From Mameliella sp. MMSF_3455 (GTDB taxonomy: Bacteria; Pseudomonadota; Alphaproteobacteria; Rhodobacterales; Rhodobacteraceae), in the NCBI RefSeq assembly GCF_030733205.1, contig NZ_JASHJL010000051.1, positions 1 through 36,277 of the forward strand: a stretch of DNA of 36,277 bases. Reading direction: 5' to 3'. The notes below the pieces were generated by a model. The model ran no database searches. It had not been told where the DNA came from and saw nothing but the letters and a program-made list of their open reading frames with translations. The translations under genes were made by a program, and so were the position numbers. This document shows, piece after piece, positions 3,474-35,917 of the stretch (its first letter is position 1; each line of letters opens with the position of its first letter).

Positions 3474-4583
3474 TTATTCCGCCGGTTCCCTGGCCGTCTT
3501 GGGCGGCGCATCGCGGTAGGTGAGCGTCGCGCCCTCTGTCGCGGCATGGCCCTGGGCGCGGGCCTGAAGGGCGCCGTGATGGGGGGATTTCACGCAGACC
3601 GGATCGGTCGCGGCGGGGTCCCCCGCAAGCGCCATGGCCTGGCAGCGGCAGCCGCCGAAATCCACGGTCTTGCGTTCGCAGCTGCTGCAGGGCTCTTGCA
3701 TCCAGTCGGTGCCGCGATAGGCGTTGAAGGCGGCGCCGTTGTGCCAGATCTCGGCCAGGGAGCGGTCCTGCACGTTCTCGAACGACAGGTGCGGGATGGT
3801 CTGGGCGGCGTGGCAGGGCAGGACCTGCCCGTCCGGGGCGACGTTCAGCCCGGTGGTGCCCCAGCCGCCCATGCAGCGCTTGGGATAGTCGCCGTGGTAG
3901 TCGGCGGGGACATAGTCGATCACCAGCCTGCCTTTCAGCGCGGCGCGCGCCTCTCCGACGATGCGTGTGGCCTCGGCGGCCTGCTCTCGTGTCGGCATCA
4001 GCGCGTCGCGGTTCTTCATCGCCCAGCCGTGGAACTGCACGGTGGCGACCTCGATCCGGCGCGCGCCCATCTCTTGCGCCATCTCCAGCGCGCGGGGCAG
4101 CTGGTGCAGGTTGCGTCGGTGCAGCACGGCGTTCAGCGTCAGCGGAAAGCCGATCTCTGCGATCCATTGCGCCACCTGCATCTTGCGGGCGAACCCGCCG
4201 CGATAGCCTCCGATCTCGTCTGCCATCTCTGCATCCGTGCCTTGCAGCGATAGCTGGACGTGGTCCAGTCCGGCGGCGTCCAGCTCTTGCAAGCGGCGCT
4301 GCGACAACCCGATGCCCGAGGTGATGAGGTTGGTATAAAGCCCCGCGTCCCGCGCCGCGCGCACCAGCTCGGCCAGGTCGCGGCGCGAGGCCGGTTCCCC
4401 GCCCGAGAGGTGCAGTTGCAGCACGCCCAACTCCGCGGCCTCTTGGAACACGCGGGCCCATGTCCCGGTGTCCAGTTCCGCGTCGATCCGGGCCAGCTCC
4501 AGCGGGTTGGAACAATAGGGACAGGAGAGCGGGCAACGGTGCGTCAGCTCTGCCAGCATGGCGATCGGGGGCGGCGGGGTCAT
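3474..4583 (-). CDS. pqqE: PQQ synthesis radical SAM protein PqqE
   Basis: PqqE cross-links the Glu and Tyr side chains of the PqqA peptide, the first step of PQQ synthesis. The 369-residue protein has the radical SAM motif CPLSCPYC at about 18-25 and a GGEP-type motif (LSGGEPA) near 60. A C-terminal SPASM region provides further cysteines for auxiliary clusters (CMGGWG, LPCHAAQ, CSSCERK, GGCRCQ). Length matches the family. The start overlaps the pqqD stop by 4 bp, so it is the last gene of a coupled pqqABCDE run. The 3' end converges on the replicase gene with an 11-bp gap. Confidence 0.97.
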   Translation of the reverse strand: MTPPPPIAMLAELTHRCPLSCPYCSNPLELARIDAELDTGTWARVFQEAAELGVLQLHLSGGEPASRRDLAELVRAARDAGLYTNLITSGIGLSQRRLQELDAAGLDHVQLSLQGTDAEMADEIGGYRGGFARKMQVAQWIAEIGFPLTLNAVLHRRNLHQLPRALEMAQEMGARRIEVATVQFHGWAMKNRDALMPTREQAAEATRIVGEARAALKGRLVIDYVPADYHGDYPKRCMGGWGTTGLNVAPDGQVLPCHAAQTIPHLSFENVQDRSLAEIWHNGAAFNAYRGTDWMQEPCSSCERKTVDFGGCRCQAMALAGDPAATDPVCVKSPHHGALQARAQGHAATEGATLTYRDAPPKTAREPAE

Positions 4584-4858
4584 CGGCTCACGTCCAGGAA
4601 ACGGCGGTCGCGCAGGGCACCGAGGAAACCGGCGCTGTCCCTGGCGATCTCTTCGGCGGGGGCATTGTATTTCTGCGCCAGGCCCGCGGTGATCTGGGCA
4701 AAGCTGCGGGCGCCGTCGACCTCGGACAGGATGGCATGGCCCACGGCGTCCAGCGTGATGGCGCGTTCGGGCGCCAGCAGCACCCAGGTCTCGCGCACCT
4801 TGTCGTAATGCAGGCGCACGCCGCGGGGCAGGGTGGGGATGTCGGATGGCCCGATCAT
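4580..4858 (-). CDS. pqqD: PQQ synthesis peptide chaperone PqqD
   Basis: PqqD binds the PqqA peptide and presents it to PqqE. The protein has 92 residues, the usual size. It begins with the family pattern of a proline-containing lead (IPTLPRGVRLHYDKVRETWVLL), followed by a winged-helix fold with LDAVGHAILSEVDG near 36-49. ATGA overlaps on both sides, with pqqC upstream and pqqE downstream, fix its place in the operon. Confidence 0.95.
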   Translation of the reverse strand: MIGPSDIPTLPRGVRLHYDKVRETWVLLAPERAITLDAVGHAILSEVDGARSFAQITAGLAQKYNAPAEEIARDSAGFLGALRDRRFLDVSR

Positions 4859-5604
4859 GAGGCGCGTTTCAGCGCCAGCCCCTCGCCCGGTTGCCAGGCG
4901 CCGGGCGGGATGCGCGCGGGGTCGACATAGGCGGCGTGCAGGGCGTCAAGCTGGGACCAGAGCACATCCGTCTTGAAGATCAGGGCCTTGGCGGCCATGT
5001 CCTGCTTTTCCTGCGTGTCGGCATGGTCCAGCACCCAGCCCAGGCCAAAGGCCACGTCCTTGGGCGCCTCCTTCAGCCGGTTGCGAAAGTAGGAGAGCGA
5101 GCTGTCATCCGCGAAATCGTAGTTCTTCAGCAGCCCCTCGATCCGGTTGGCGTGGATCTTGGGGGCGAAAAGCTCTGTCAGCGAGGCGGCCACCGCCTCC
5201 AGCAGGGTCTTGTCGCGGACAAAGCGGACGTAGGCATCGACGGCGAATTTCGTGGCCGGCAGCACGCCCGCGCAGGAGGCGACATAGTCGGGGTCCAGCC
5301 CCACCGCCTCTGCCAGCCGCAGCCAGCGGCGGATGCCGCCCTCGTTGGTGTCGGTGCCGTCGTGATCCTCGATCCGGCTTCGCCAGGCGCGGCGCAGGTC
5401 CGGGTCCTCGACCCGGGACATGAAAGCGGCGTCCTTCATAGGGATCGAATGTTGGTAGTAATAGCGGTTGATGACCCAGGCGCGCACCTGGTCGGGGGTG
5501 CAGCCGCCGCCGTGCAGGAGGTCATGGAAAGGGTGCAGGTCGTGATAGCGTTCGGCGCCGATCTGGCGCAGGCGGGCCTCGAAATCCTCGCGGCTCTGGG
5601 TCAT
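4855..5604 (-). CDS. pqqC: Pyrroloquinoline-quinone synthase PqqC
   Basis: PqqC is the cofactor-less oxidase that performs the final ring closure and eight-electron oxidation to PQQ. It has 249 residues of an all-helical heme-oxygenase-like fold. Visible family signatures include RYHDLHPFHDLLHGG near the N terminus, INRYYYQHSIPMKDAAFMSR, and EDHDGTDTNEGG. The start was placed at ATG 5604, which overlaps the pqqB stop by 4 bp. An open frame extends upstream to 5640, but that part would overlap pqqB and adds nothing family-like. Confidence 0.96.
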   Translation of the reverse strand: MTQSREDFEARLRQIGAERYHDLHPFHDLLHGGGCTPDQVRAWVINRYYYQHSIPMKDAAFMSRVEDPDLRRAWRSRIEDHDGTDTNEGGIRRWLRLAEAVGLDPDYVASCAGVLPATKFAVDAYVRFVRDKTLLEAVAASLTELFAPKIHANRIEGLLKNYDFADDSSLSYFRNRLKEAPKDVAFGLGWVLDHADTQEKQDMAAKALIFKTDVLWSQLDALHAAYVDPARIPPGAWQPGEGLALKRAS

Positions 5605-6497
5605 GTGGTGATCTCCATTCCGTCCTGTCCGATGGTCCACCCGGCGGCCTCGGCCCGGGCGCGTTCATCGGACTCCGGGCGCAGCACGGGGTTGGTGTTG
5701 TTCATGTGGACATAGATCTTGCGGGTGATCCCCAGCCCGTCGAAGGCGGCCAGAGATCCGTCCGGACCGCTCATCGACATGTGGCCCATGCGCTTGCCGG
5801 TCTTCTGGCCAAGGCCCTCTGTGATCATCTCGTCGTCGCGCCAGAGCGTGCCGTCGAAGAACAGCAGGTCGGCGCCCTGCAGGCGCGCGCGCAGGTCGTC
5901 GGTCAGCATGGCGCAGCCGGGAATATAAAGCGTGCGGGTGTCGCCTGTCATCAGTTCGACGCCGACGGTCTGGTCGCCGATCACGTCGGTCTGGACGGTC
6001 TCGCCCTCCATGTAGAGCGGCACCTTGCCGGGCACGGCAAAAAGCGTCGCCGTCAGGCCGGGCAGCAGGTCGAAGGGGCGGTCGAGGTCGATGGCGCTGC
6101 GGGTGACGACCCTGGCGTTCAGCGCGTCGAAAATCGGGTTTTGCGCCAGGACCTCGTGGATGCCCGAGGTGGCGAACAGGGTGAATTCCTGCATCTCGCG
6201 CAGGGTCAGCAGACCGGCGACGTGGTCGATATCTCCATTTGTCACCAGCACGGCGCGCAGGGGGCAGTCACGCAGCCCCGTCGGGAACAGCGCGGGCGTG
6301 CAGGAGAGTTGGTGACGAATGTCGGGGGAGGCGTTCAATATCGCCCAGGTCTGACCGTCTGCTGACACCGCAAGAGAGGACTGGGTCTGGGAGGGAATAT
6401 CCCCGGCGCGGGCGAGGGCGCAGTTGCGACAACCGCAGTTCCACTGCGGCAGGCCACCGCCCGCCGCCGCCCCGAGGATATGCGCGCGGAAACTCAT
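5601..6497 (-). CDS. pqqB: PQQ synthesis hydroxylase PqqB
   Basis: PqqB is a metallo-beta-lactamase-fold, non-heme iron enzyme that hydroxylates the cross-linked Glu-Tyr intermediate. The 298-residue protein begins with the family pattern LGAAAGGGLPQWNCGC. That start carries the paired cysteines C21 and C23 in WNCGCRNC, and a metal-binding TNGDIDHVAGLL lies near 86-97. ATG at 6497 follows the pqqA stop by 22 bp, and the 3' end overlaps pqqC by 4 bp. Confidence 0.96.
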   Translation of the reverse strand: MSFRAHILGAAAGGGLPQWNCGCRNCALARAGDIPSQTQSSLAVSADGQTWAILNASPDIRHQLSCTPALFPTGLRDCPLRAVLVTNGDIDHVAGLLTLREMQEFTLFATSGIHEVLAQNPIFDALNARVVTRSAIDLDRPFDLLPGLTATLFAVPGKVPLYMEGETVQTDVIGDQTVGVELMTGDTRTLYIPGCAMLTDDLRARLQGADLLFFDGTLWRDDEMITEGLGQKTGKRMGHMSMSGPDGSLAAFDGLGITRKIYVHMNNTNPVLRPESDERARAEAAGWTIGQDGMEITT

Positions 6498-6519: not shown

Positions 6520-6612
6520 TCAGAACAGGACGCCGTCGTCGTGCTCGGGGCCGTACATGTTGATTTCCATGCCGCATTCGATCTCGCGGATCGCGGGTTT
6601 CTTCCAGGCCAT
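6520..6612 (-). CDS. pqqA: PQQ precursor peptide PqqA
   Basis: This 30-residue ribosomally made peptide is the substrate from which PQQ is cut. It contains the diagnostic E-x-x-x-Y pair: Glu16 and Tyr20 in MEINMYGPE. A strong Shine-Dalgarno AGGAGG lies at 6625-6620 on the minus strand, 7 bases before the ATG at 6612, fitting the high expression of this peptide in other methylotrophs. It opens the pqqABCDE run. The 81-bp gap upstream holds a candidate operator. Confidence 0.96.
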   Translation of the reverse strand: MAWKKPAIREIECGMEINMYGPEHDDGVLF

Positions 6613-6683: not shown

Positions 6684-6699
6684 TTCTTATTTTCTAAGA
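6684..6699. promoter_or_regulatory. 16-bp AT-rich shared element, pqqA copy
   Basis: TTCTTATTTTCTAAGA occurs here and again at 16625-16640. Here it covers the response-regulator stop codon and lies about 72 bp upstream of pqqA. The arms TTCTTA and TAAGAG form an imperfect inverted repeat around TTTTC. In this G+C-rich sequence such an AT-rich exact repeat in two promoter regions suggests a regulator binding site. Confidence 0.55.
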
Positions 6700-7377
6700 G
6701 CCCTCCGCGATTTTCGGGGCGGTTCCGGTGAGGCAAAAACCCTTGTTCCGTATCGTTCTGATTTCAAACAGGAAATCCTGACCGCTCAATTTCTTGCGCA
6801 GATAGCCGATGTAGACGTCTACGACGTTTTCACTAGTCCCCTCCGCCGACCAGAGGTGGTCAAAGATCGCGCCGCGATGCAGCGGGGTGCCCGCGTGTTC
6901 GGCCAAGAGGCACAAGAGGTCGGCCTCGCGCTCGGTCAGGGTGACCTCTCCGGCGGGGCCGGTCAGCACCCGGTCGGGCAGGGTCAGGCGGGCGGATTGC
7001 GGCGCCTGCCGGTCGGCGCGGCGTTCCTGCACCCGCAGCCGGGCCACCAGCTCGTCAAAGGAGAAGGGCTTGACGATATAGTCGTCGGCCCCGGCCTCCA
7101 GCCCCGCGGCGCGGTGTTCGACCTCGGACAGGGCCGAGAGCATGAGGATCGGCAGGGTGGCGCCGCGCGCGCGGGCGGTGCGCACCAGGTCCAGCCCGCT
7201 GTCGGCGCCTAGCATCACGTCGACGATGGCGCCGCGGAACGGCTCTGCCAGCAGCCGGTCCAGCGCGCGATCGGCGCGGTTCTCGGTCTCTGCCGCGTAG
7301 CCGTGCAGCGCCAGCCCCCGGGCCAGGGCCGAGGTGATCTGCGGGTCGTCGTCGACGATGAGAAGGCGCGCGGTCAT
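6694..7377 (-). CDS. OmpR-family response regulator
   Basis: This 227-residue two-domain regulator has a receiver domain (about 4-112) with the acidic pocket DDD at 9-11, the phosphoacceptor Asp53 in IVDVML, and Lys in YIVKPFSF near 103. A C-terminal OmpR/PhoB winged helix follows (about 130-220), with LTEREADLLCLLAEHAG and IRTIRNKGFCL. It lies 9 bp after its sensor kinase and 81 bp before pqqA on the same strand. By analogy with MxbDM and MxaYX systems of other methylotrophs it may control pqq, xox or lut genes; that is inference. A specific symbol cannot be assigned. Confidence 0.93.
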   Translation of the reverse strand: MTARLLIVDDDPQITSALARGLALHGYAAETENRADRALDRLLAEPFRGAIVDVMLGADSGLDLVRTARARGATLPILMLSALSEVEHRAAGLEAGADDYIVKPFSFDELVARLRVQERRADRQAPQSARLTLPDRVLTGPAGEVTLTEREADLLCLLAEHAGTPLHRGAIFDHLWSAEGTSENVVDVYIGYLRKKLSGQDFLFEIRTIRNKGFCLTGTAPKIAEGS

Positions 7378-7386: not shown

Positions 7387-8955
7387 CTACCCCTCCGCAA
7401 GGGGAAGGAGAACCGCGATCTTTGTCCCGGCGGACCCGTCGGGCAGGGGGCTGGTCAGGGCGATCCGCCCGCCCTGTTCCTCGATCACCCAGCGGGCCAG
7501 CGCCAGGCCGATGCCGAACCCCTGGGCATTGGCGGCCTGCCCCTGTGCGAAGCGGTCAAAGATGCGGTCCTGCTCCTGTTGCGCAATGCCGGGGCCATGA
7601 TCGGTGACGGCGATCCCTGCCAGCGCGCCGTCGCGCGCCGGGCCGATCCGCACCAGCCCGCCGGCGCGGGCGTGGCGGATGGCATTGCGCACCAGCCCGG
7701 CCAGAACCTGCCGCAGCCAGTTGGGATCGGCGGTCACCGTCAGGTCGGGGATCTCTTCGAGGCCCAGCCGCATCCCGGCGTTCTCGATCTCGGCGCCGAC
7801 CTCCTCGGCGACCTCTTGGGCGATGCGGGGCAGGGGGGCGGGCTGCACCTCCAGCGCCAGTTGCCCGCTGTCCGAGCGCGCCACGCGCAAGAGGTCGTCG
7901 ATCCGCCGGTTCAGCCGGGCGGCGCGGGATTCGATGGTGGCAAAGGCCTCTGGCGCGGTGCCGGTCTGGCGGCCGATCTGCGCCTCCATCAGGATCACGG
8001 TCAGCGGCGTGCGCAATTCGTGGCTGATGTCGGCGAAAAACCGGCGGCGGTTCTCGTCGACCTGTTCCAGCCGCAGGTTGGCGGCGCTGAGCGCCTCGGT
8101 GCGTTCGGCCACGATCTCGTTCAGGCGGGCGCGGTCGGCGTCGATCTCGGCCTGCCGATCCGCCAGCGCGCGGGCCATGCGGTTGGTTTCGGCGTAAAGC
8201 TGCCCGATCTCGTCGCCCCGGGTGACCGGCAGGGCGACGGCGAAATCCTCTTGCCCGATCTGGCGCGCGGCGGCGCGCAGGCGGTCCAGCCGTCCGAACT
8301 GTGGCCGGATCAATCCGAAGTAGAAGAGCAGGACCAGCGCCAGCGACAGGCCGGCGAGGATGATGGCAGTCAGCGAAAGGCTGCGGCGCAGGTCCTCGAT
8401 GCCTTGCAGGGTCTCGTTGCGGAACCGCGCCTCGGTGCTGACCGCCTGGCTGAGCAGCGGGTCGATGGCGCTGGCGAAACTGTCGGTCTGGGCGCGCAGG
8501 CGGTCGCGGTCCGCCTCTGGATTGGCCAGCGCGGTCACCGTGTTGTCGAGCAGCGCGCGCATCCGCGCGAGGCCCAGCGACTGGGTGGCGTGGCGCGATT
8601 GCTGGTCGATCCCCAGCGCCTCGGCCCGGATCACCGCCTGTTCGAGGTCGCGGTCGAGATCGCTGAAGGTGCGGCGCAACTGGTCGGCCACGGGCGCCAG
8701 CCGGTCGGCCCGCGTGTCGGCGGACATCCCGCTTTGCGCCGCCTCGGTCGCCACCACCAGGAACCCCGAGACCTGCCGCGACAGCGCGGCATAGCGGTTC
8801 ATCCGCGCCTCGGCCGCCAGCGCCGCGTCCAGCCGGTCGGCCACCCGCGTCATGCCGGTATAGAGGACCGCCGCCGCCAGCAGCGTGCCCGCCCCCAAGA
8901 GCGCCGCGCCCAGTCCCAGCCGCAGTTTCAGCGAGAGCGAGGGGATCAGGGGCAC
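7387..8955 (-). CDS. Membrane sensor histidine kinase
   Basis: This 522-residue sensor partners the adjacent response regulator. From the GTG at 8955 it has membrane segment 1 (about 12-34) and a roughly 160-residue periplasmic helical sensor. Membrane segment 2 (about 197-216), a HAMP linker and a short coiled coil come next. The dimerisation box has His312 in DISHELRTPL, and an HATPase domain follows with N, G1 and G2 boxes (NAIRHA, DHGPGI, GFGIGLALA). GTG at 8955 was chosen because GGAAGGAGA precedes it; an ATG at 9021 would add 22 residues of no recognisable kind. The ligand is unknown. Its place beside pqqA suggests methanol, PQQ or metal status. Confidence 0.92.
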   Translation of the reverse strand: MPLIPSLSLKLRLGLGAALLGAGTLLAAAVLYTGMTRVADRLDAALAAEARMNRYAALSRQVSGFLVVATEAAQSGMSADTRADRLAPVADQLRRTFSDLDRDLEQAVIRAEALGIDQQSRHATQSLGLARMRALLDNTVTALANPEADRDRLRAQTDSFASAIDPLLSQAVSTEARFRNETLQGIEDLRRSLSLTAIILAGLSLALVLLFYFGLIRPQFGRLDRLRAAARQIGQEDFAVALPVTRGDEIGQLYAETNRMARALADRQAEIDADRARLNEIVAERTEALSAANLRLEQVDENRRRFFADISHELRTPLTVILMEAQIGRQTGTAPEAFATIESRAARLNRRIDDLLRVARSDSGQLALEVQPAPLPRIAQEVAEEVGAEIENAGMRLGLEEIPDLTVTADPNWLRQVLAGLVRNAIRHARAGGLVRIGPARDGALAGIAVTDHGPGIAQQEQDRIFDRFAQGQAANAQGFGIGLALARWVIEEQGGRIALTSPLPDGSAGTKIAVLLPLAEG

Positions 8956-9063
8956 GGGGGTCTCCTTCCGGGATGACCGGATTCTGGGCGATACGGGCTG
9001 TGCCGCCTGAAATTCATGCATCGCTTTGCGGCAGAGTTGCGCAGCGGGGCAGGGGGTTTCTCG

Positions 9064-9127: not shown

Positions 9128-9340
9128 ATGATAGAACTGCTGTTTGTCGCCTGCCTCTCGGGCGCGCCCGATGCGCCCGGAGGCTGCCAGGAGAAGAGCC
9201 TGCTCTTTACCGACGTGACGCCGATGACCTGCATGATGGGCGCCCAGCCGGTGCTGGCCAAATGGGTCGAGACGCACCCCGGATTTGCCATCCGCAGCTG
9301 GACCTGCAAGACGGTGAACCCCGCCGAGCGCGAGGTCTGA
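9128..9340 (+). CDS. Small conserved protein, 70 residues
   Basis: This is a small protein of unknown function. It has four cysteines (LLFVACLS, GGCQEK, MTCMMG, SWTCKT) and a hydrophobic start, but no convincing signal peptide. Small proteins of this look (VACLS, CQEKSLLF, MTCM, ahead of a WV-x-T-HP segment) are common in Rhodobacteraceae. AGAGGTGA precedes the ATG by 6 bases. It is divergent from the sensor kinase, and the promoter region carries a 9-bp inverted repeat. The paired cysteines could be structural disulfides or a metal site; nothing more can be said. Confidence 0.75.
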   Translation: MIELLFVACLSGAPDAPGGCQEKSLLFTDVTPMTCMMGAQPVLAKWVETHPGFAIRSWTCKTVNPAEREV

Positions 9341-9541: not shown

Positions 9542-10333
9542 TCAGGTCTTGCGCTTCATCAGCCCGCGGGCGGGGTCGTAGCCCCAGACGGCGGCGCCCA
9601 TCAGGACGACGACCGAGAGCGACACCCAGCCGAGGGCGGGCAGGTTCAATTGGAGGTAGAGCGCAAAGCGGATCAGCTCGACGGCGTGGGTGAAGGGATT
9701 GACCGCGCAGATGTCGTGCAGGAGCTCCGAGCTTTCGGCCATTTTCCACAAGGGGTAGAGCGCCGAGGAAAGGAAGAACATCGGGAAGATGACGAAGTTC
9801 ATCACGCCGGCGAAGTTTTCCAGCTGGCGGATGAAGCTGGAAAGCACCAGCCCCAGCGCCCCCAGCATCAGCCCCGCCAGCGCCAGCGCGGGCAGGGCGG
9901 CGAGATAGCCCAGGGGCGGCATGGTGATGCCGAAGGCGGCGGCCACCGCGAGGAAGGTATAGACCTGCAGGATGGAAATCGCCGTCGAGCCCAGCAGCCG
10001 CGAGAACAGCAGCCACCAGCGCGGGAAGGGGCTGGTGAGCAGGAGCCGCATGGAGCCCATTTCCCGGTCGTAGACCAGCGACAGCGAGGATTGCATGCCG
10101 TTGAACAGCAGGATCATCCCGCAGAGGCCGGGGACGATGTAGGTCTCGTAGGTGATGTAGGTCTGGTAGGGCGGGATGATCGACAGGCCGAGCGCGGCGC
10201 GAAACCCGGCGGCAAAGACCAGCAGCCAGACCAGCGGGCGCACGAGCGCGGCGATGAACCTTTCGCGCTGGTGGACGAAGCGCAGGAACTCGCGCCCGAT
10301 GACGGCGCGCAGGATGCCCAGGTGTCCCTTCAT
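9542..10333 (-). CDS. lutF: ABC-2 type permease, LutF/PedC family
   Basis: This is the membrane component of the PQQ-alcohol-dehydrogenase-associated ABC transporter. The 263-residue protein has about six hydrophobic segments and a typical ABC-2 layout (REFLRFVHQRERFIAALVRP at the start, then VYDREMGSMRLLLTSPF in the cytoplasmic loop). Its start overlaps the lutE stop by 4 bp. In Methylobacterium (lut) and Pseudomonas (ped) the equivalent system is needed for lanthanide-dependent growth. Older family names call it an alcohol transporter. It is the last gene of the operon starting at lutA. Confidence 0.88.
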   Translation of the reverse strand: MKGHLGILRAVIGREFLRFVHQRERFIAALVRPLVWLLVFAAGFRAALGLSIIPPYQTYITYETYIVPGLCGMILLFNGMQSSLSLVYDREMGSMRLLLTSPFPRWWLLFSRLLGSTAISILQVYTFLAVAAAFGITMPPLGYLAALPALALAGLMLGALGLVLSSFIRQLENFAGVMNFVIFPMFFLSSALYPLWKMAESSELLHDICAVNPFTHAVELIRFALYLQLNLPALGWVSLSVVVLMGAAVWGYDPARGLMKRKT

Positions 10334-11052: not shown

Positions 11053-11065
11053 CGCATAATCCGTC

Positions 11066-13393: not shown

Positions 13394-13514
13394 TGTCTGT
13401 CCTCCCCTGTCTCGCCGGACCTCCCTGCCCGGCTTTCCCTTGTCGACCCTAGTGCGCCGCAGGCAGCGCGGCGACTGGTCCAAAGGTCGTGATTCCCGCC
13501 ACGGAAACGGCAAC

Positions 13515-13822: not shown

Positions 13823-13842
13823 CGGTGGGGTCTCCTCGGGGG

Positions 13843-15288: not shown

Positions 15289-15303
15289 CAATCGGAACTC
15301 CGG

Positions 15304-16598: not shown

Positions 16599-16612
16599 CC
16601 TACCGGATACAC

Positions 16613-25372: not shown

Positions 25373-26485
<1,113 letters not shown>

Positions 26486-29229: not shown

Positions 29230-29888
29230 TCCTCCACCCCTTCAAACCGCACTTCGGAGCGATACACCGTGGCCGTCTCGGGTCCGGAGGTCTCGGCGGT
29301 CAGCGACAGATACCAGCCCGGCACCTCTTCGGACATGACGACGCGCATCTCCAGCTCGCCAAAGCCCTTCATCCGCGCCCTGTTCGGATCCTCGGCAAAG
29401 GGATGCAGCCGCACGATGCGCACCGGCACGCTGCGGCCGTCGAAGGTGGCTTCGCCCTCTTCGACCTCGGTCGGGGCAACCAGCGCCTCCTTGACGCGGT
29501 TGCGGATGTAATAGGGGCTGCCGCCCGCCGCCTCGGCCATGTCGCGGATCACGCTTTCGTAGAAATACATGATCATCGGGTTGCCGACGCTGGCCGGGAA
29601 ACGGCCCAGCCCGCGGTGCCTGTCATTCTTGCGGAATTCCAGCCGGGCCAGCGGATCGTCCGTGGCGCCCAGCGTCAGGGCGATGTCGCCGCTGTCGCGC
29701 TCTGCCGCCTCGGGCGACAGCGCGTTGGTGACGGCGCGCGAATAGATCAGCGTCGCCTCGGCGCCGATCCCGTCCAGCGTGCCCTTGCGGAACAACAGGT
29801 CATAGTGTTCGCCCGGCTCCACCGGCGTGGCCTGCACCGGCGCGGTGGCAAGGGCCGCGGCAATGCAGATCGCGGATAGAAGTTTCAT
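29226..29888 (-). CDS. Exported protein of unknown function
   Basis: This 220-residue protein has a signal peptide ending near TAPVQA|T, then a beta-rich mature part (GEHYDLLFRKGTLDGIGAEA, GNPMIMYFYESVIRDMAE, YYIRNRVKEALV). It has no cysteine in the mature part and no recognised motif. It overlaps the hybrid kinase gene by 4 bp and the 114-residue gene by 4 bp, so the three are translationally coupled. It may be a periplasmic partner of the regulatory system or of XoxF; neither is shown. Confidence 0.8.
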   Translation of the reverse strand: MKLLSAICIAAALATAPVQATPVEPGEHYDLLFRKGTLDGIGAEATLIYSRAVTNALSPEAAERDSGDIALTLGATDDPLARLEFRKNDRHRGLGRFPASVGNPMIMYFYESVIRDMAEAAGGSPYYIRNRVKEALVAPTEVEEGEATFDGRSVPVRIVRLHPFAEDPNRARMKGFGELEMRVVMSEEVPGWYLSLTAETSGPETATVYRSEVRFEGVEE

Positions 29889-32263
29889 GTGATGTGCCTC
29901 CCTGCGCCCAGAGTATTCCCCTGCGTCTCGCTGTCATGGCCGACTTTTGTCTGTGCCCGTTCATGGGCCTGTTCCTGTGCCTGTTCCCGGGGCTGATCAT
30001 GGTCCTGATCCGGGTCCTGCGCCCCGCCCTCCAGCACCGGGCCCGGCGATTGCCAGCGGATCTTCCATTCGATCAGCGGCCGCAGCTTGGACAGCTGCAC
30101 CGGCTTGTGCATCACGGTAAAGCCCAGCTCTGCCCCCTGCCGCCGGATCTTTTCGCGCCGGTCGGCGGTGATCACGATGGCGGGCACATGCACCCCGGTT
30201 TCGCGCCGGATCTCGGTGATGGCGCGCACGCCGGTGTCGTCGCCGTCCAGCTGGTAATCCGCCAGAACGATGTCCGGCGCCAGCCCCATGTCCCGCACAT
30301 GCATCAGGGCCTCTGCGGTCGAGGGCGCGGCCAGCACGCTGGCGCCCCAGTGTTCCAGTTTCTGGGTCATGGCAAACAGCACGTCCGGGTCGTTCTCGAT
30401 CACCAGGATGATGCGCTCCAGCTCCAGGTCGGTGTCCGCCGGCGCCACTGCCTGCGCCTCGGCCGGGACACGGCGGCCCGGCACCCGGTCCAGCTCGATG
30501 CAGAACAGCGAGCCGACCCCGGGTTTCGACCGCACCCACAGCCGATGGCCCAACAGTTTGCAGGCCCGGTCCACCACCGACAGGCCCAGCCCCACGCCCG
30601 AGGCGAGCGAGACGTTTTCCGCCCGGGCGAATTCCTCGAAGATGCGTTTCTGATCCTTCAGCCCGATGCCGATGCCGGTATCCCAGACCTGCAACACCAC
30701 CTTGTTGCCGCGGCGGCGGCAGCCCACCAGCACCCTGCCCCCCGGTTCGGTGTACTGGATCGCGTTGACGACAAGGTTCTGGATCGACCGCAGCAGGTAG
30801 ACCGGATCGGAACAGACCAGCACGTCCGAGGGCACCACCGACAGGCGCACGTTCTTCTGTTCGGCCAGCGCGGTCTGGTCCTCGTAGATGCCCTGCATCA
30901 GCACGCCCAGGGAAATCTCGCTGGGGGTGACGGCGCTGGGATCGGCGCTTTCGAGGCGCGAGATGTCCAGCAGCGAATGCAGCAGTTGCTCGGTGGAGCC
31001 GAAGGCCCCGTACAGCCGTTCCACCGTGGCCGCGAATTCCGTGCCTCGCGTGCGTTCCTTGAGCGTCGCCAGCAACAGCTTGGCCGCGTTCACCGGCTGC
31101 AAGAGGTCATGGCTGGCCGCCGCCAGGAACCGCGTCTTGGACGAGACCGCCGCCTCGGCCCGTTCCTTGGCCAGGCGCAATTCCTCCTCCACCCGGGCCT
31201 TTTCCTCGTATTGTTCGGTCAGGCGGCGGTTGGCCTCTGTCAGTTCGGCGGTGCGTTCCTGCACCCGGTTTTCCAGGATCTCGGTGGCGCGGCTTTCCAG
31301 CGTCACGTCGGTCAGTTCCACGAGGAACCCGTCATCCGGAAGCCGGTTGACCTGCAATTCCAGCACCCGGTCGGTGCCGTGGCGGATGCGCTTGCGCAGC
31401 CAGCCTTCCTGTTGCAGGTGCCGCCGCCAGGCCTCGACCCGCAGGTCGGCATCCTCGGCCACCAGCGCGTGATTGCGCATGAAATCCAGCAGCCGGCTGA
31501 GGGTCGTGCCCTTTTGCAACAGGGTAAAGGGCAGGCCCAGCAATTGCCGGAACTGCCGGTTGTACATCATCACCTCGCCCGAGGAGGAAAAGGTGCAGAC
31601 GCCGGATGTCATGTCCTCGAAGGCGGCCTGGATATAGGCCGCCTGCCGGTCGATCAGGTGTTCCTTCTCGGATCGGTTCTGCCGCACGATCGAGGTGATT
31701 TCCGTCAGCAGAAGCACCACGTTCGACGAGGCCGTGCGCTGTTGGCTGAGCTGGTACCAGCGGTCGCCGCGCAGCTCGATCACCGCCGAGCGGACAGAGG
31801 CGCCGGCGCGGTCCTCGGGGGCGAAAATGCGGTTGATGCCGCGGTCGGTCGAGACCAGCGCGCGGCTTTGCATCATGTAATCAAGATAGTCTTCCAGCCG
31901 CAGCCCCTTGCGCACGCGAAAGGCCACGTCGGGCAGGAAGGTGCGGAACAGCACGTTGCAGATGTCCAGCCGCCCGCCGGTGAACAGGGCGAACCCCTCG
32001 CCCATCGCCGACAGCGCATCCTCCAGCGTGCGGCGGGCGCGCTCGCGGTCGTAGCGGACGCTTTCCAGCTCTGTCGCGGCGCGTTCCAGGTCGCGGGTCT
32101 TGGCCGCCACCTGCGCCTGCAGCTCGATGGCCGACTGAAAGGCGCTGTAGGCCGAAACGCCGACATCGTTGCTGCGGTTGGCGCGGCGCATCAGCGCGTC
32201 GATGATCTTGGCCTGCCGGGCGATCTGTTCCTCGGGCGGGGCGTTTTCGTCGACCAGGCTCAT
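29885..32263 (-). CDS. Soluble hybrid histidine kinase (PAS, HisKA, HATPase, receiver)
   Basis: This 792-residue cytoplasmic kinase lacks membrane segments. It has an N-terminal coiled coil (about 15-85), two PAS-like domains (about 80-195 and 205-325), and a coiled coil ending in HisKA with His385 in AAASHDLLQPVNAA. An HATPase (NLVVNAIQYTEPGG near 475) and a receiver domain (about 580-700, Asp in LADYQLDG) follow. The closing tail is rich in Gln, Glu, Asp and His. The SHDLLQPVNAA box places it in the NahK/ErcS-type group. ATG 32263 overlaps the FIST gene stop by 4 bp. Paracoccus FlhS is a functional parallel, regulating formaldehyde dehydrogenase. Confidence 0.92.
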   Translation of the reverse strand: MSLVDENAPPEEQIARQAKIIDALMRRANRSNDVGVSAYSAFQSAIELQAQVAAKTRDLERAATELESVRYDRERARRTLEDALSAMGEGFALFTGGRLDICNVLFRTFLPDVAFRVRKGLRLEDYLDYMMQSRALVSTDRGINRIFAPEDRAGASVRSAVIELRGDRWYQLSQQRTASSNVVLLLTEITSIVRQNRSEKEHLIDRQAAYIQAAFEDMTSGVCTFSSSGEVMMYNRQFRQLLGLPFTLLQKGTTLSRLLDFMRNHALVAEDADLRVEAWRRHLQQEGWLRKRIRHGTDRVLELQVNRLPDDGFLVELTDVTLESRATEILENRVQERTAELTEANRRLTEQYEEKARVEEELRLAKERAEAAVSSKTRFLAAASHDLLQPVNAAKLLLATLKERTRGTEFAATVERLYGAFGSTEQLLHSLLDISRLESADPSAVTPSEISLGVLMQGIYEDQTALAEQKNVRLSVVPSDVLVCSDPVYLLRSIQNLVVNAIQYTEPGGRVLVGCRRRGNKVVLQVWDTGIGIGLKDQKRIFEEFARAENVSLASGVGLGLSVVDRACKLLGHRLWVRSKPGVGSLFCIELDRVPGRRVPAEAQAVAPADTDLELERIILVIENDPDVLFAMTQKLEHWGASVLAAPSTAEALMHVRDMGLAPDIVLADYQLDGDDTGVRAITEIRRETGVHVPAIVITADRREKIRRQGAELGFTVMHKPVQLSKLRPLIEWKIRWQSPGPVLEGGAQDPDQDHDQPREQAQEQAHERAQTKVGHDSETQGNTLGAGRHIT

Positions 32264-33417
32264 CCCAGCGCCCTGCCCGCCGGGTCGAAGAAGGCGACGC
32301 CGACAAAGGTCTGGTTCATGTGCACCCCGCAATGCTGTTCGCCATAGGTGTTGAAGCCCAGCACCCTGTGCGCCCGGAACAGCGCCGAGGCATCGGCGCC
32401 CAGCTGTTTCTGCTCGATCTCCAGCTTGCGCAGCACGCAGTCGAAGCCAAGGATGAAATCCGGCGTCAGCCCGCCGGGGCCCGAGACGCTCAGCCCCGCC
32501 TCCAGCGTCTTGATGATCTCGGTGCCCTTGCCCAGGGTCAGCACCACCCCGTCGTCGATGGCGGCCAGAAAGGACAGCGCCTGCCCGTCCTTCACGCTGC
32601 TGATGGCGCGGACGTAGTAATTCTGGTTGTAGCGCACCAGGATCGGGTTCTCGGCAAAGATCTGCGGCGACAGGTCCGCGACCCCGCAGCCCACCAGCCG
32701 GGCATATTCCTGCGCCGCCGGGGCGCCGTTGATCTCGTTCACCAGCCGTTCCTCGGGGTCGGCATCGGTGATCACCAGTTGCGTCTCCGTGGGCAGGAAA
32801 TGGTCGAAGCCGATGCCCTGGAACTGCAGGTCGGTTTCCAGCAGCATCAGCAGCGCCACGTTGCTGCGGAACTGCCCGTTGTGCAGGATGTAGGTTTCCC
32901 CGAAGGACAGCCCGTCCCCGGCCGAGCCGCCGAAGACCGGCAGGTCGTCCAGCACCGTTTCCAGCGTCGAGATCAGCAGGTCTTCCTGTTTCGACAAGCC
33001 GTCCGACAGGATCAGCGCCAGCCGGTTCCAGCCGGCGGTGCGCTGGAACCGCACCGCGTGGCGTTTCGCCTGCGCCGCGATCTCGGTGATCGAGATCGGC
33101 TTCAGCGGTTCGATCAGCAGCGAGGCACAGCGGAAATGTTCGCGCGGAAAGGCGATCAGCTGCAACGCGCCGGTTTCATAGCCGCGCGCGGTAATCTGCC
33201 CGGCGGTGGTGCAGCCAAAGACCGGCACGCCCCCCATGCGGCGGGTCAGTTCCTGCGCCATCACCTCGCGGTCGAAACTCTGCGGCATCAGCGCCAGCAC
33301 GAAACAGGTGTCGCGCGGGTCGATACAGGCCGATGCCTCGCGCACGGCGGCGGCCGTGTCCGCCTGCGTCGAGACGCCGACCCGCACATGGGCCGGAGAG
33401 ATGTCGTCGTCCCGCAT
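32260..33417 (-). CDS. FIST-domain sensor protein
   Basis: This 385-residue protein has FIST_N (about 10-210, with VFGCTTAGQITARGYETGAL and LPVFGGSAGDGLSF) and FIST_C (about 220-365, with VNEINGAPAAQEYARLVG and HCGVHMNQTFVGVAFF). There is no signal peptide or membrane segment. In Pseudomonas a FIST protein, NosP, is encoded beside the hybrid kinase NahK and acts as its heme-based nitric oxide sensor. Here the pair is coupled by a 4-bp overlap. The ligand here is unknown and could be a C1 compound rather than NO. Confidence 0.92.
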   Translation of the reverse strand: MRDDDISPAHVRVGVSTQADTAAAVREASACIDPRDTCFVLALMPQSFDREVMAQELTRRMGGVPVFGCTTAGQITARGYETGALQLIAFPREHFRCASLLIEPLKPISITEIAAQAKRHAVRFQRTAGWNRLALILSDGLSKQEDLLISTLETVLDDLPVFGGSAGDGLSFGETYILHNGQFRSNVALLMLLETDLQFQGIGFDHFLPTETQLVITDADPEERLVNEINGAPAAQEYARLVGCGVADLSPQIFAENPILVRYNQNYYVRAISSVKDGQALSFLAAIDDGVVLTLGKGTEIIKTLEAGLSVSGPGGLTPDFILGFDCVLRKLEIEQKQLGADASALFRAHRVLGFNTYGEQHCGVHMNQTFVGVAFFDPAGRALG

Positions 33418-33418: not shown

Positions 33419-34138
33419 CTACCGGCTCAGGAACGCCTGCGCCTCCGGGTCCAGCCCCGCGGCACCGGACATCGCGTTTTCCATCATGACGGCGGCCTGG
33501 GTGCGGTTCTGCACCCCCAGCCGGCGCAAGAGCGCGGTGATATGCGCCTTGACCGTGGCCTCTGCCAGCGACAGTTCATAGGCGATCTGCTTGTTCGGCT
33601 TGCCGGCGCAGATCAGCTTCATGATGCGTTTCTGCTGCGGCGTCAGCTCGGCAAAGCGGGGGTTCATCTCGGCGGCATCGCCGGGATCGCTGGGCTGCGG
33701 CGCCGATTGCAGGATGTCCTTGGGGAAATATTTCCGCCCCGAGGCGATTTCCGTCAGCACCGAGGCCAGCACCTTGGCCGAGGCGTCCTTGGGCAGAAAG
33801 CCCGCCGCCCCCTCGCGCATCAGCGTGCGCACCAGTTCCACCGAGGCCAGCGAGGAAATCACCAGGATCGGCGTGCTGGCCATGCGGTCGCGCAGCTCCA
33901 GAAAGCCGGAAATCCCGGTCACGTCCGGCAGTTTCAGGTCGAACATCACCAGGTCCGGTTCCAGCCCGCCTTTCAGCAGGGCCATCGCCTCTTTCAGCGT
34001 GCCGGCCTTCTGCACGGCGCAATCCGCAAAGACGATGCCAAGCGCGGCGGCCAGCGCGTCACTGTATAGCGGGTGGTCGTCAACAATGAGAACGGATGAG
34101 AAACATCCATCCGGCACGGCGCCCGTGTCTTGATACAT
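33419..34138 (-). CDS. NarL/FixJ-family response regulator
   Basis: This 239-residue regulator has a receiver domain (about 15-135) with IVDDHPLYSD and phosphoacceptor Asp67 in MFDLKLPD, then a LuxR-type helix-turn-helix (about 170-230: LTPQQKRIMKLICAGKPNKQ, then ATVKAHITALLRRLGVQNRT). It stands 1 bp before the FIST gene and so belongs to the kinase operon, comparable in role to FlhR/EraR. ATG 34138 (MYQDTGAV) was chosen because AGGAAAGG precedes it; the frame runs open to 34189. Confidence 0.93.
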   Translation of the reverse strand: MYQDTGAVPDGCFSSVLIVDDHPLYSDALAAALGIVFADCAVQKAGTLKEAMALLKGGLEPDLVMFDLKLPDVTGISGFLELRDRMASTPILVISSLASVELVRTLMREGAAGFLPKDASAKVLASVLTEIASGRKYFPKDILQSAPQPSDPGDAAEMNPRFAELTPQQKRIMKLICAGKPNKQIAYELSLAEATVKAHITALLRRLGVQNRTQAAVMMENAMSGAAGLDPEAQAFLSR

Positions 34139-34219
34139 TTGCCTTTCCTCCCAGGTTCCGAAGATACCCGAAGATCGCCCCTTGTCCATTTTTTCCGTGA
34201 CGCTGACGGCTTTGCGCGA

Positions 34220-34260: not shown

Positions 34261-34899
34261 TCAGGCCAGGGCGCCTTTCTGCTTGGCGACATGGGTGGCG
34301 ATCACGTCCATCAGGGCCGGCGACAGGCAGTCGTAGGGCGGCAGCCCCAGTTCCGTCAGCCGGCCGCGGATCTCGTCCATGCGGTCGGGCGGAACCCCCG
34401 ATTCGATGATCGACGAGACGAAGGCGGCGAATTCCGGCGCCGCCCAGCCGGTCTTGTCCGACAGTTCCGTGTGCACGAAATCCAGCCCGTGGAACGGGTG
34501 GCCGGTGTTCTCGACCCGGCCATACATGTGCACGCCGCAGTCGCGGCAGGCGTGGCGCTGGATCGCCGCCTCGGTGTCGATGATGTCCAGCTTGTCGGCG
34601 TTCTCCGTCACCTTGACGTGGTCACGCCCGACCACCGCGACCTGGCTGAAGATCGCGCCGTCCGGCTTCCAGCACTTGGTGCAGCCGCAGACGTGGTTAT
34701 GCGCGGTCTGGGCCCCGACCTCGACCTTGACCGGGTTGCTGGAACACTTGCAGGTCAGCGTCCCGCCCGAGAAACCCGGCGCCGTCGGCGGGATGCCGTT
34801 GTCCACCTGGGGGTGGATTTTCACATGGGTGTATTTCGGGGCTGGCGGGTCCGTGTCCGCGCTGTCTCCGCCCCCAAAGAGCTTGTCGAGAAGTGCCAT
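34261..34899 (-). CDS. gfa: S-(hydroxymethyl)glutathione synthase (Gfa)
   Basis: Gfa is the glutathione-dependent formaldehyde-activating enzyme; it speeds the condensation of formaldehyde with glutathione ahead of AdhI. The 212-residue protein has the family's zinc cysteines: [22 protein letters not shown] and [13 protein letters not shown]. Length is slightly above the usual 190. ATG 34899 with GGGAGGAACGG was chosen; an upstream ATG at 34926 adds nine unlikely residues. An inverted repeat (34921-34936) lies just upstream. It sits ahead of the response-regulator operon on the same strand. Confidence 0.96.
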
Positions 34900-34920
34900 T
34901 TCCGTTCCTCCCAATGATGA

Positions 34921-34936
34921 CGGCATGAAAATGCCG
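34921..34936. promoter_or_regulatory. Inverted repeat upstream of gfa
   Basis: CGGCAT and ATGCCG are exact arms around GAAA, 21 bp before the gfa start. It could be an operator or a leader hairpin. Only the symmetry supports it. Confidence 0.4.
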
Positions 34937-35008
34937 CATCCTTCACAGCGTGAGGCACGAGGGGGGAGTCTGGCAATTCAGCCGATGGTATCGGCCTTGG
35001 CGCGGGCC

Positions 35009-35917
35009 TCAGCCGGGTCCGGGACCGCACTCCGGCGCCAAGAGCGGCGCGTTCGCCGGGTCCGCCATGCTGACCCGCGCGCGCTGCGCGAGGTCGTCAA
35101 AGGCGCGGTCGATATAGTCGAGAAACCCCGCCTCGTTGGTCTGCTCGACCGGCGCGCGGGCCACGGCGTGCATCATGAACAGGTCAAAGGCGCACAGCCC
35201 GCGCGGGTTGGACTGCAGCAGGGCGCGCATGAACTCCGGCGAGCCCCAGCGCAGGCGCGACAGGTCGGTCGGCACCTCCTGCAGCTTGGACAGGAAACCG
35301 CCCTGCCGGTCGAATTGCAGCACGTCCATGCCAAAGGTGAAGGCCTGGAACAGTTCCTCGATCAGGATCGAACGGTAAAAGGCCCGCGCCAGCGCATCCG
35401 CCGGGCGGTATCCCTCTTGCTGCACCATGATATGCGTGCCCGTCCCGCGCCGCCCGAAAAAGGTCTGCGCCATGCCGGGCGACAGCACCGGGTAGTGCCG
35501 GCCGCCGGGCAGGCCCAGGGCGTAGACCTCGTTCAGGCGGGCGATGTCGCGGGTCAGCGCGGCGTCGGGCGGATCGCCGGAATAGAGCCGCAGGACCACG
35601 GTGCGCCCGGTGCCGCAGGCGCGCGCCGATGGCCCGGCATAGCGGCTGGGCAGGCCCTTGCCATGCACCTGCGCGGCAAGGTTGCCAAAGGCGGCGATCA
35701 CCGCGCGCGTGTCCTCTGACGGCGGGTCGCCCACGATGCAGAGCGCCGCCCCCGCCAGGTCGCGCCCGTTGATATGCACCGGGATGTCCCGGCGCATCCG
35801 GCGGTCGCGCAATTCATACAGCCAGCCCTTTTCCGCCAGCGCCAGGTAGGCGGCGCGATCGTCGGCGGCGGCGGCGCAGGTCATGGCCAGAAGGGCGGCA
35901 AGGATCAGGCGGACCAA
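35009..35917 (-). CDS. Exported protein of unknown function (possibly DUF2927-like)
   Basis: This 302-residue protein has the signal peptide MVRLILAALLAMTCAAAA followed by a mature domain with segments VVLRLYSGDPPDAALTRDIA, GRRGTGTHIMVQQEGYRP, YRSILIEELFQAFTFGMDVL and LCAFDLFMMHAV. The EELFQAF block and the segments after it loosely recall DUF2927 proteins of Rhodobacteraceae; this is weak. TTG 35917 was chosen as start since AGGAG lies seven bases before it and the signal peptide begins there; the upstream in-frame ATG at 36031 yields a long basic lead. It precedes gfa by 109 bp. Function unknown. Confidence 0.78.
   Translation of the reverse strand: MVRLILAALLAMTCAAAADDRAAYLALAEKGWLYELRDRRMRRDIPVHINGRDLAGAALCIVGDPPSEDTRAVIAAFGNLAAQVHGKGLPSRYAGPSARACGTGRTVVLRLYSGDPPDAALTRDIARLNEVYALGLPGGRHYPVLSPGMAQTFFGRRGTGTHIMVQQEGYRPADALARAFYRSILIEELFQAFTFGMDVLQFDRQGGFLSKLQEVPTDLSRLRWGSPEFMRALLQSNPRGLCAFDLFMMHAVARAPVEQTNEAGFLDYIDRAFDDLAQRARVSMADPANAPLLAPECGPGPG

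What the first reader, a model, noticed from the sequence alone, without database searches (positions are those of the whole stretch)
3474..35917. A self-contained methanol-to-formate module on a small stable plasmid
Nearly every gene outside the maintenance block belongs to one pathway: PQQ synthesis (pqqA-E), lanthanide uptake homologues (lutABEF), XoxF with XoxG and XoxJ, Gfa, AdhI, FghA, cytochrome c and two regulatory systems. These gene sets are usually chromosomal. Their collection with parAB and parDE on 36 kb makes a transferable methylotrophy unit that is not filled with unrelated cargo.
Basis: partly seen in the sequence, partly recalled or inferred. Interest (0 to 1): 0.85.

Follow-up and report, generated by a model that had tools for sequence, protein, structure and literature searches.

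The report
Small plasmid dedicated to methanol oxidation
A bacterium, probably of the marine genus Mameliella, carries a 36-kb circular plasmid that is almost nothing but a rare-earth-dependent methanol-to-formate pathway built around its own replication genes, and that holds the only complete-looking set of PQQ-cofactor genes found for this cell.

Summary
The contig closes as a 36,200-bp circle: its 77-bp ends are identical and parB reads through the joint. It carries a DnaA-like replicon, parDE, pqqA-E, lut-like genes, XoxF/G/J, FlhA, FghA, Gfa and two regulatory systems. The rest of the 5.7-Mb assembly gave no second XoxF and no second PqqE over cut-off. Another genome of the same genus has the same plasmid as its own 34,378-bp circle.

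The interpretation needs correcting. 'Transferable' is unsupported (no relaxase or T4SS match in the ORFs scanned). 'Self-contained' is too strong: formate dehydrogenases and a second FlhA lie on other contigs. Related clusters are often plasmid-borne.

Further results: (1) Alloyangia and Salipiger plasmids have repABC at the same joint, between pqqE and gfa; Mameliella alba pKUB257 has the module beside repABC with scars of both ends of the DnaA-like replicon. The cluster has sat on exchangeable replicons, as published for photosynthesis clusters. (2) All six genomes of the genus searched have a second, ethanol-dehydrogenase-like quinoprotein, but PqqE only where the plasmid is (2 of 6). (3) parDE stands where relatives have a SoxH-like hydrolase. 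New variant of a known kind. The genus name is inferred.

The parts
1..986 (-). parB (start codon side); the gene continues across the circle joint to 36074, 370 aa
36074..36200 (-). parB (stop codon side), the same gene across the joint
36201..36277 (.). 77-bp duplicate of window 1-77 (assembly overlap that closes the circle)
983..2290 (-). parA (RepA-type partition ATPase)
   Evidence: dN/dS 0.019 against G005
66..81 (.). parS-like motif CTTACCCGTGGGTAAG; further copies at 1292-1307, 2383-2398, 36046-36061
   Evidence: 4 sites, 0 expected; 4 copies of the core motif in G005 C249 too
2501..2566 (+). three iteron-like repeats CATAGGGGGACA, candidate origin
   Evidence: 3 found with up to 1 mismatch, 0.02 expected
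2779..3462 (+). DnaA-like replication initiator (DnaA N-terminal domain, HTH below cut-off), 227 aa
   Evidence: PF11638 25.4 bits, cut-off 24.6; 53.5% identical to the homologue on the 285-kb plasmid typed DnaA-like I
3474..4583 (-). pqqE
4580..4858 (-). pqqD
4855..5640 (-). pqqC
5601..6497 (-). pqqB
6520..6612 (-). pqqA
6694..7377 (-). response regulator beside pqq
7387..9021 (-). HAMP sensor histidine kinase beside pqq
9128..9340 (+). small ORF, 70 aa, no family match; a 213-nt ORF is annotated at the same place in KU6B and Sagittula stellata
9542..10333 (-). lutF-like permease (TIGR03861)
10330..11097 (-). lutE-like ATPase (TIGR03864)
11066..13525 (-). second ABC transporter (Ssu/NMT1-like ATPase, permease, binding protein)
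13565..14286 (-). PepSY protein and 147-aa protein without family match
14302..15291 (-). lutB-like beta-propeller (TIGR03866)
15304..16596 (-). lutA-like periplasmic binding protein (TIGR03863); KU6B annotation suggests a later start
16436..17682 (+). DUF3280 protein and SRPBCC protein (two ORFs)
17666..18604 (+). YncE-like beta-propeller
18601..19407 (+). SoxYZ-like carrier 1 (TIGR04557)
19470..20174 (+). Sel1-repeat protein; absent from the two close relatives
20171..20716 (-). PQQ-associated CXXCW protein (TIGR03865)
20713..21642 (-). xoxJ-like (TIGR03871)
21542..22081 (-). xoxG-like cytochrome c (TIGR03874)
22164..23966 (-). xoxF (XoxF5 type), WDYDG motif at residue 317
24115..24519 (-). 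cytochrome c (c550-like)
24545..25369 (-). fghA, S-formylglutathione hydrolase
25373..26485 (-). flhA/adhI, glutathione-dependent formaldehyde dehydrogenase, 370 aa
26648..27265 (+). 205-aa protein, no family match, recurs in related clusters
27348..27590 (+). parD antitoxin
27597..27926 (+). parE toxin
28026..28826 (+). SoxYZ-like carrier 2 (TIGR04557)
28885..29888 (-). two hypotheticals (114 and 220 aa) that recur in related clusters
29885..32332 (-). NahK-like PAS hybrid histidine kinase (below the NahK cut-off)
32260..33417 (-). NosP-like FIST-domain sensor protein (356.9 bits, NosP cut-off 450)
33419..34189 (-). response regulator (ErdR-like, below the ErdR cut-off)
34261..34926 (-). gfa
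35009..36031 (-). protein of unknown family; in KU6B, not in C249

Best explanation
The contig is a complete circular 36.2-kb DnaA-like plasmid of a roseobacter, probably Mameliella, whose cargo is one cluster for lanthanide-dependent methanol oxidation. Shown by sequence: circularity, gene content, no second XoxF or PqqE in the host assembly, the same circle in a second genome of the genus, sequence conservation typical of selected genes. Inferred: PqqA-E make PQQ; XoxF with PQQ and a lanthanide oxidises methanol (perhaps ethanol) in the periplasm with help of XoxJ; electrons go to XoxG and cytochrome c; formaldehyde is trapped by Gfa and glutathione, oxidised by FlhA and released as formate by FghA; host formate dehydrogenases on other contigs finish to CO2. 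Lut-like proteins handle the metal. The DnaA-like protein fires the origin at the iterons; ParAB with four parS-like sites and ParDE keep the plasmid in the line. The replicon joins the two outer ends of the cluster (gfa side and pqqE side). On the way to pKUB257 of M. alba this replicon was broken and a repABC backbone took over.
For: Circle. Same circle in G005: 34,455-bp contig C249 with its own 77-bp overlap, opened inside xoxF instead of parB, 91.3% identical over 34.2 kb. Genes. One XoxF and one PqqE over cut-off. Conservation: 35 of the 43 genes compared with C249, pooled dN/dS 0.122, highest 0.402; 34 with KU6B, pooled 0.140, highest 0.36. Replicon type. Host formate dehydrogenases. 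Scars in pKUB257: the last 50 residues of the DnaA-like protein at 83795-83944, and window 54-119 with a parS copy at two mismatches at 116233-116296, beside repABC at 116811. repABC between pqqE and gfa in three other plasmids. XoxF5 essential for methanol growth in another roseobacter (PMC5934484, section 15).
Against: No growth, enzyme, copy-number or read data. Circularity rests on assembly overlap plus gene continuity, not on a long read. The DnaA_N match is only just over cut-off. Low dN/dS does not exclude recent decay: the broken DnaA-like piece in KU6B also scores 0.069. The SoxH-like hydrolase that most relatives keep in the cluster is missing, so the relay could be impaired. Many roseobacters with xoxF5 do not grow on methanol or were not tested (PMC5934484, section 15).
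Confidence: 0.85

Rival explanations
1. The contig is a segment of a chromosome or larger plasmid between two copies of a 77-bp repeat, so the circle is an assembly illusion.
For: Only a k-mer-sized overlap links the ends; in M. alba KU6B the module is part of a 256-kb plasmid.
Against: The end stretch gave no other place in the own assembly (40 of 313 candidates scored); parB is whole only across the joint; an independent assembly of another genome is also a circle of nearly the same content, opened elsewhere.
Confidence: 0.04
2. The plasmid is a recently acquired mobile element passing between species.
For: 2 of 6 genomes of the genus have XoxF; the KU6B version sits on a plasmid typed conjugative. 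Plasmid identity G000-G005 (91.3%) exceeds two of three other loci (87.3 and 87.5%) and equals the third (91.0%).
Against: No relaxase or T4SS match in the ORFs scanned; the three clusters of the group form one branch next to Sagittula, so no distant donor; 271 of 293 plasmids with this kind of replicase are typed non-mobilizable.
Confidence: 0.2
3. The ancestral replicon was repABC (as in Alloyangia and Salipiger) and the DnaA-like module is the newcomer in this genus; pKUB257 then regained a repABC.
For: repABC lies at the same joint in 3 plasmids of the Alloyangia/Salipiger group; RepA of KU6B is 85% identical to theirs.
Against: RepB at 61% and RepC at 41-43% are far apart; no DnaA-like scar was found in Salipiger or Alloyangia, so the order cannot be read there; the two groups are separate in the cluster tree. 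This concerns the deep history only: in the KU6B line the DnaA-like form came first.
Confidence: 0.35
4. The plasmid serves ethanol, other alcohols or formaldehyde detoxification more than methanol.
For: XoxF5 of strain La 6 is needed for methanol and ethanol (PMC5934484, section 15); no assimilation gene matched on the plasmid.
Against: The whole Gfa-FlhA-FghA route is attached and conserved, which fits a formaldehyde-producing substrate.
Confidence: 0.15

Closest known systems
Mameliella alba KU6B pKUB257 (NZ_AP022338), 256 kb
   Same: Same module, same order, 93.2% identical over 31.8 kb
   Different: repABC plasmid typed conjugative, with about 224 kb besides the module; DnaA-like replicon reduced to two scars in the 75 kb read; extra parDE beside pqqE. 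Its genome report has no match for methanol or PQQ (PMC7206491, term search)
repABC plasmids of Alloyangia pacifica (205 kb, two strains) and Salipiger sp. CCB-MM3 (281 kb)
   Same: Cluster with the replication module at the same joint between pqqE and gfa
   Different: repABC instead of DnaA-like; the cluster is a small part of the plasmid; SoxH-like gene annotated in CCB-MM3 and Alloyangia YSBP01
Photosynthesis gene cluster plasmids of Rhodobacteraceae (PMC6052148, part of abstract and passages)
   Same: Whole energy pathway on a plasmid whose DnaA-like I replication module sits at one fixed place inside the cluster and was replaced by RepB-III in one strain
   Different: Photosynthesis, not methanol; that paper has no match for 'methanol'
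Sinorhizobium meliloti pSymB 28.5-kb region (PMC12628762, passages)
   Same: XoxF, glutathione pathway, lanthanide uptake and PQQ genes together on an extrachromosomal replicon
   Different: 1.7-Mb megaplasmid; coupled to the Calvin cycle
Bacillus methanolicus pBM19, 19 kb (PMC8119897, PMC4342826, PMC3602061: abstract starts in a search listing)
   Same: Small natural plasmid on which methylotrophy depends
   Different: NAD-dependent dehydrogenase and ribulose monophosphate genes; absence of PQQ and lanthanide parts recalled
Paracoccus aminovorans pAMV1 (title seen only in the reference list of PMC9025767)
   Same: Described in that title as a lifestyle-determining extrachromosomal replicon of a methylotroph
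   Different: Not examined here

Membership tests
DnaA-like plasmid of Rhodobacterales | DnaA-like replicase | tested here: met
   PF11638 just over cut-off; 293 plasmid records with a homologue; 53.5% identical to the homologue on the 285-kb plasmid that PMC3910543 types DnaA-like I
DnaA-like plasmid of Rhodobacterales | parAB operon next to and divergent from the replicase | tested here: met
   Same layout beside that homologue
DnaA-like plasmid of Rhodobacterales | Compatibility group | not tested
   No tree of replicases was built
DnaA-like plasmid of Rhodobacterales | Autonomous replication | not testable with these tools
   Needs a replication test
XoxF5 lanthanide methanol dehydrogenase | PQQ alcohol dehydrogenase family over cut-off, closest to solved XoxF | tested here: met
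   TIGR03075; best PDB match 6oc5 XoxF, 1080.9 bits; 87.5-97.2% identical to 9 PLSDB entries, 4 of them named XoxF5
XoxF5 lanthanide methanol dehydrogenase | Extra active-site Asp that predicts lanthanide use | tested here: met
   DYD aligned with DFD of 6oc5; rule from a passage of PMC12628762, motif position recalled
XoxF5 lanthanide methanol dehydrogenase | Methanol dehydrogenase activity with lanthanide | not testable with these tools
   Needs an enzyme test
Glutathione-linked formaldehyde oxidation | Gfa, FlhA, FghA present | tested here: met
Lut lanthanide transport | LutA, B, E, F-type proteins | tested here: inconclusive
   TIGR03863, 03866, 03864, 03861 over cut-off, not compared with Methylorubrum Lut proteins
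Lut lanthanide transport | TonB receptor LutH | tested here: not met
   No TonB receptor match among the plasmid ORFs scanned; the host was not searched for it
Conjugative or mobilizable plasmid | Relaxase or type IV secretion genes | tested here: not met
   No match among the ORFs scanned; oriT not tested
ParDE toxin-antitoxin | ParD and ParE side by side | tested here: met
   ParE matched Pfam only

The most novel reading that the evidence does not exclude
The plasmid is a minimal methylotrophy circle with its replicon built into the cluster, and it acts as a cofactor donor. All six genomes of the genus that were searched have a PedH/ExaF-like quinoprotein (in G000 beside a cytochrome c, binding proteins and a SoxH-like hydrolase), yet PqqE was found only on the plasmid, in 2 of the 6. 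Acquiring the plasmid would then give methanol oxidation and at the same time switch on a resident apo-dehydrogenase for ethanol and other alcohols.
Probability: 0.4. Interest if true: 0.75.

Novelty: new variant of a known kind. Interest (0 to 1): 0.62.

Why it matters
It gives a small natural cassette with which lanthanide methylotrophy might be gained or lost in one step, so the question 'what must a heterotroph acquire to oxidise methanol' becomes directly testable by curing and transfer. The shared replicon position and the replicon replacement caught in pKUB257 extend to a second energy pathway what was reported for photosynthesis clusters in this family. Dependence of a resident quinoprotein on plasmid-made PQQ would be a testable case of cofactor supply by an accessory replicon.

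Tried and rejected
Assembly artefact: rejected. FlhA fusion protein (673-aa ORF): rejected; KU6B and C249 have a 370-aa gene and the stretch upstream is occupied by genes on the other strand in KU6B. Decaying relic: not supported, though that test cannot exclude recent decay (the DnaA-like scar in KU6B also scores low). A pKUB257 relative without the module in the other genomes of the genus: searched with 10 kb of its left flank; only short matches, but this found the DnaA-like scar. DnaA-like scars in Salipiger/Alloyangia: none. Sel1 protein as a recent copy of the one beside the other quinoprotein: best segment 34% over 89 residues, so no. Promoter and terminator scan of the origin region: 0 promoter-like sites and 2 terminator-like sites against 0.2 and 0.8 expected. 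Paper searches: xoxF, plasmid, Roseobacter, methanol dehydrogenase (6 papers); Mameliella alba, plasmid; extrachromosomal, xoxF, Rhodobacteraceae; plasmid-dependent methylotrophy (12 listed); methylotrophy, plasmid, Rhodobacteraceae, methanol oxidation, replication; xoxF, megaplasmid (12 listed). In what I saw (listings, and passages of those opened) none describes a small xoxF plasmid or a fixed replicon position in the methylotrophy cluster; the library holds open-licence papers only. A search on exogenous PQQ gave one unrelated paper. Not done: structure prediction, a replicase tree, the rest of pKUB257 (60-135 kb was read), the Sagittula MA-2 joint, a host search for PqqA-D, LutH or assimilation genes.


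Full report
WHAT IS THERE. The window is contig C59 of a 5.71-Mb assembly of 111 contigs. Its first and last 77 bases are identical. A search of the assembly with window 1-3000 gave that stretch only at the two ends of C59; 40 of 313 candidates were scored. When the duplicate is removed and the ends are joined, parB becomes a complete 370-aa gene whose stop lies at 36074. The molecule is best read as a 36,200-bp circle. G+C is 66.8%, against 64.4-66.1% in four 20-kb stretches of other contigs.

REPLICON. Window 36046-36200 plus 1-3468 holds parB, parA and, divergent, a 227-aa protein with a DnaA N-terminal domain (just over cut-off) and a helix-turn-helix (below cut-off). Homologues occur in 293 plasmid records; 271 are typed non-mobilizable, 15 mobilizable, 7 conjugative. 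One of them, at 53.5%, lies on the 285,395-bp plasmid of Leisingera methylohalidivorans, which its genome paper types DnaA-like I (PMC3910543, passages); the layout parB-parA / replicase is the same. The 16-bp motif CTTACCCGTGGGTAAG occurs four times, each in or beside the replicon (0 expected); I read it as parS. Three copies of CATAGGGGGACA, one with a mismatch, lie between parA and the replicase; I read them as iterons. Both readings are inference.

CARGO. From pqqE (3474) to gfa (34926) the genes belong to one system: PqqA-E, a two-component pair, LutF/E-like, a second ABC transporter, LutB/A-like, accessory proteins, XoxJ, XoxG, XoxF, cytochrome c, FghA, FlhA, and a NahK/NosP/ErdR-like regulatory set next to Gfa. 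XoxF matches solved lanthanide XoxF best and carries the DYD motif. The Sel1 gene 19470-20174 is absent from both close relatives.

HOST. No second XoxF was found: the one other hit is 38% identical and closest to quinoprotein ethanol dehydrogenases 6zcv/6zcw. No second PqqE passes the cut-off; three weak hits do not. The host has a second FlhA at 86% and three formate dehydrogenase alpha subunits over cut-off on other contigs. PqqA-D were not searched genome-wide.

A SECOND GENOME HAS THE SAME PLASMID. Of the 6 genomes of the genus held (own included), 2 have XoxF. In G005 it lies on a 34,455-bp contig with its own 77-bp end overlap, opened inside xoxF, with the same replicon and module and without the Sel1 and 35009-36031 genes. 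Identity is 91.3% over 34.2 kb. Three other 20-kb loci of the same two genomes are 87.3, 87.5 and 91.0% identical, so the plasmid is not clearly younger or older than the genomes. Of 43 genes, 35 were compared (left out: parB, pqqA, pqqD, the 70-aa ORF, DUF3280, SRPBCC, Sel1, the 340-aa gene): pooled dN/dS 0.122, maximum 0.402. Against KU6B 34 genes gave 0.140, maximum 0.36; the DnaA-like scar is among them and also scores low (0.069), so the test shows conservation but cannot exclude recent decay.

REPLICON EXCHANGE. In M. alba KU6B the module lies on the 256-kb repABC plasmid pKUB257, typed conjugative, 93.2% identical. Both ends of the DnaA-like replicon are still visible: the last 50 residues of the replicase at 83795-83944 (86%), and window 54-119 at 116233-116296 (85%), where one parS copy remains with two mismatches. 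repABC starts 515 bp further on. The right scar looks like a deletion between the parS copies at 36046 and 66 (inference). Hence in this line the DnaA-like arrangement preceded the present one. I read 60-135 kb of pKUB257, so a displaced DnaA-like core elsewhere is not excluded.

FIXED POSITION. PLSDB holds 9 records with XoxF at 87% identity or more. I looked at the joint in 8 (not Sagittula MA-2). In 3 of 8 (Salipiger CCB-MM3, Alloyangia YSBP01 and T6124) repABC lies between pqqE and gfa, the place of the DnaA-like module here; KU6B is a fourth, looser case, with repABC on the gfa side and the long backbone between. Not so in Sagittula stellata, Sagittula P11 and Ruegeria AD91A (in the stretches read), and not seen in the stretches read of Salipiger abyssi. 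In a quick maximum-likelihood tree of four proteins the three clusters of this group form one branch next to Sagittula, and Salipiger/Alloyangia are separate. So either the closed circle is old and its replicon was changed, or the two outer ends of the cluster were joined by a replicon twice. The published parallel is the photosynthesis cluster, where DnaA-like I modules sit at one position and RepB-III replaced one (PMC6052148, part of abstract and passages). My paper searches found no such statement for methylotrophy (open-licence papers only; listings and passages).

COFACTOR. A quinoprotein 38-40% identical to XoxF occurs in all 6 genomes of the genus; in G003 it lies on a 4.7-Mb contig. 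In G000 it sits with a cytochrome c, binding proteins, a beta-propeller and a Sel1 protein and, 14 kb away, a SoxH-like hydrolase; gene content was annotated in G000 only, while the surroundings align in all 15 pairs over 5.8-19.0 kb at 79.6-93.0%. PqqE passes the cut-off only in G000 and G005, in both on the plasmid. So 4 of 6 have the enzyme without a recognised PqqE. This is wider: in 120 genomes of the family (drawn evenly, own included), 38 have a PQQ alcohol dehydrogenase over cut-off, 28 have PqqE, 26 have both, and 12 of the 38 have no PqqE (cross-count mine). They may use outside PQQ, as is known for Escherichia coli glucose dehydrogenase (recalled).

TOXIN-ANTITOXIN INSIDE THE PATHWAY. 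parDE lies between the 205-aa gene and soxYZ2. In 19 related loci where these genes and flhA could be placed, none has a ParD or ParE match at E 1e-8 and 18 have 1.1-2.1 kb there. In 5 of 6 gaps examined the longest ORF is a metallo-hydrolase by eye (in L067 another frame was longest). The one tested is TIGR04559, quinoprotein relay system zinc metallohydrolase 2. No genome of the genus has TIGR04559 over cut-off (0 of 6; related paralogues score up to 169 of 280 bits). Other plasmid copies carry other toxin-antitoxin genes inside or beside the cluster: Xre-RES in Alloyangia YSBP01, Phd-VapC in S. abyssi, HipA with an HTH gene in CCB-MM3; none is annotated in the stretches read of the Sagittula and Ruegeria plasmids. 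Embedding such a pair would punish loss of the cluster itself; that is inference.

MECHANISM AND LIMITS. Enzyme roles are taken from families and from experiments elsewhere: XoxF5 essential for methanol and ethanol growth in roseobacter La 6 (PMC5934484, section 15), lutE and lutF needed for La-dependent growth in Methylorubrum (PMC7391723, passages). I saw no expression or growth evidence for this strain.

VERDICT. Observation confirmed; interpretation partly supported; a new variant of a known kind (plasmid-borne methylotrophy).

Noticed in passing
related loci L026-L105; genomes G125-G138: In 28 of 80 loci the contig ends in flhA just upstream of xoxF (24 inside the matched gene, 4 within 26 codons before fghA). 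In 9 of 14 such genomes the same flhA end recurs on two or more contigs. Of 8 pairs aligned, 6 matched at 89-99% over about the flhA piece only; 2 gave nothing (one pair was two different ends, one was wrongly paired from two genomes). Suggests recurrent gene conversion or duplication of flhA.
   Followed up: partly
Family census: 12 of 38 genomes of the window's family with a PQQ alcohol dehydrogenase over cut-off have no PqqE over cut-off: orphan quinoproteins are common.
   Followed up: partly
window 27348-27926 and loci: Different toxin-antitoxin genes lie in or beside the plasmid-borne methylotrophy cluster in different lineages; here parDE stands where relatives have a SoxH-like hydrolase.
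   Followed up: partly
window 19408-20172: A 765-bp stretch with a Sel1-repeat gene, G+C 61.6%, absent from both close relatives.
   Followed up: partly
window 35009-36031: 340-aa protein with a signal-peptide-like start (by eye) and no family match; present in KU6B, absent from C249.
   Followed up: no
window 26648-27265, 28885-29229, 29226-29888, 13843-14286: Four proteins without family match recur in place in many related clusters.
   Followed up: no
G047:C16:453708-454757 and G106:C44:270461-272059: A PqqE-like frame with two TAG stops inside and a PQQ alcohol dehydrogenase frame with one TAA inside: possible decay or assembly error in those genomes.
   Followed up: no
L069 (Arenimonas MAG), L033 (Geminicoccaceae MAG): Methylotrophy clusters that group with Ciceribacter and with roseobacters in the tree: misbinned contigs or transfer.
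   Followed up: no
KU6B pKUB257 83956-84499: A second, distinct parDE (ParD 36%, ParE 26% identical to the first) lies between pqqE and the replicase scar.
   Followed up: partly
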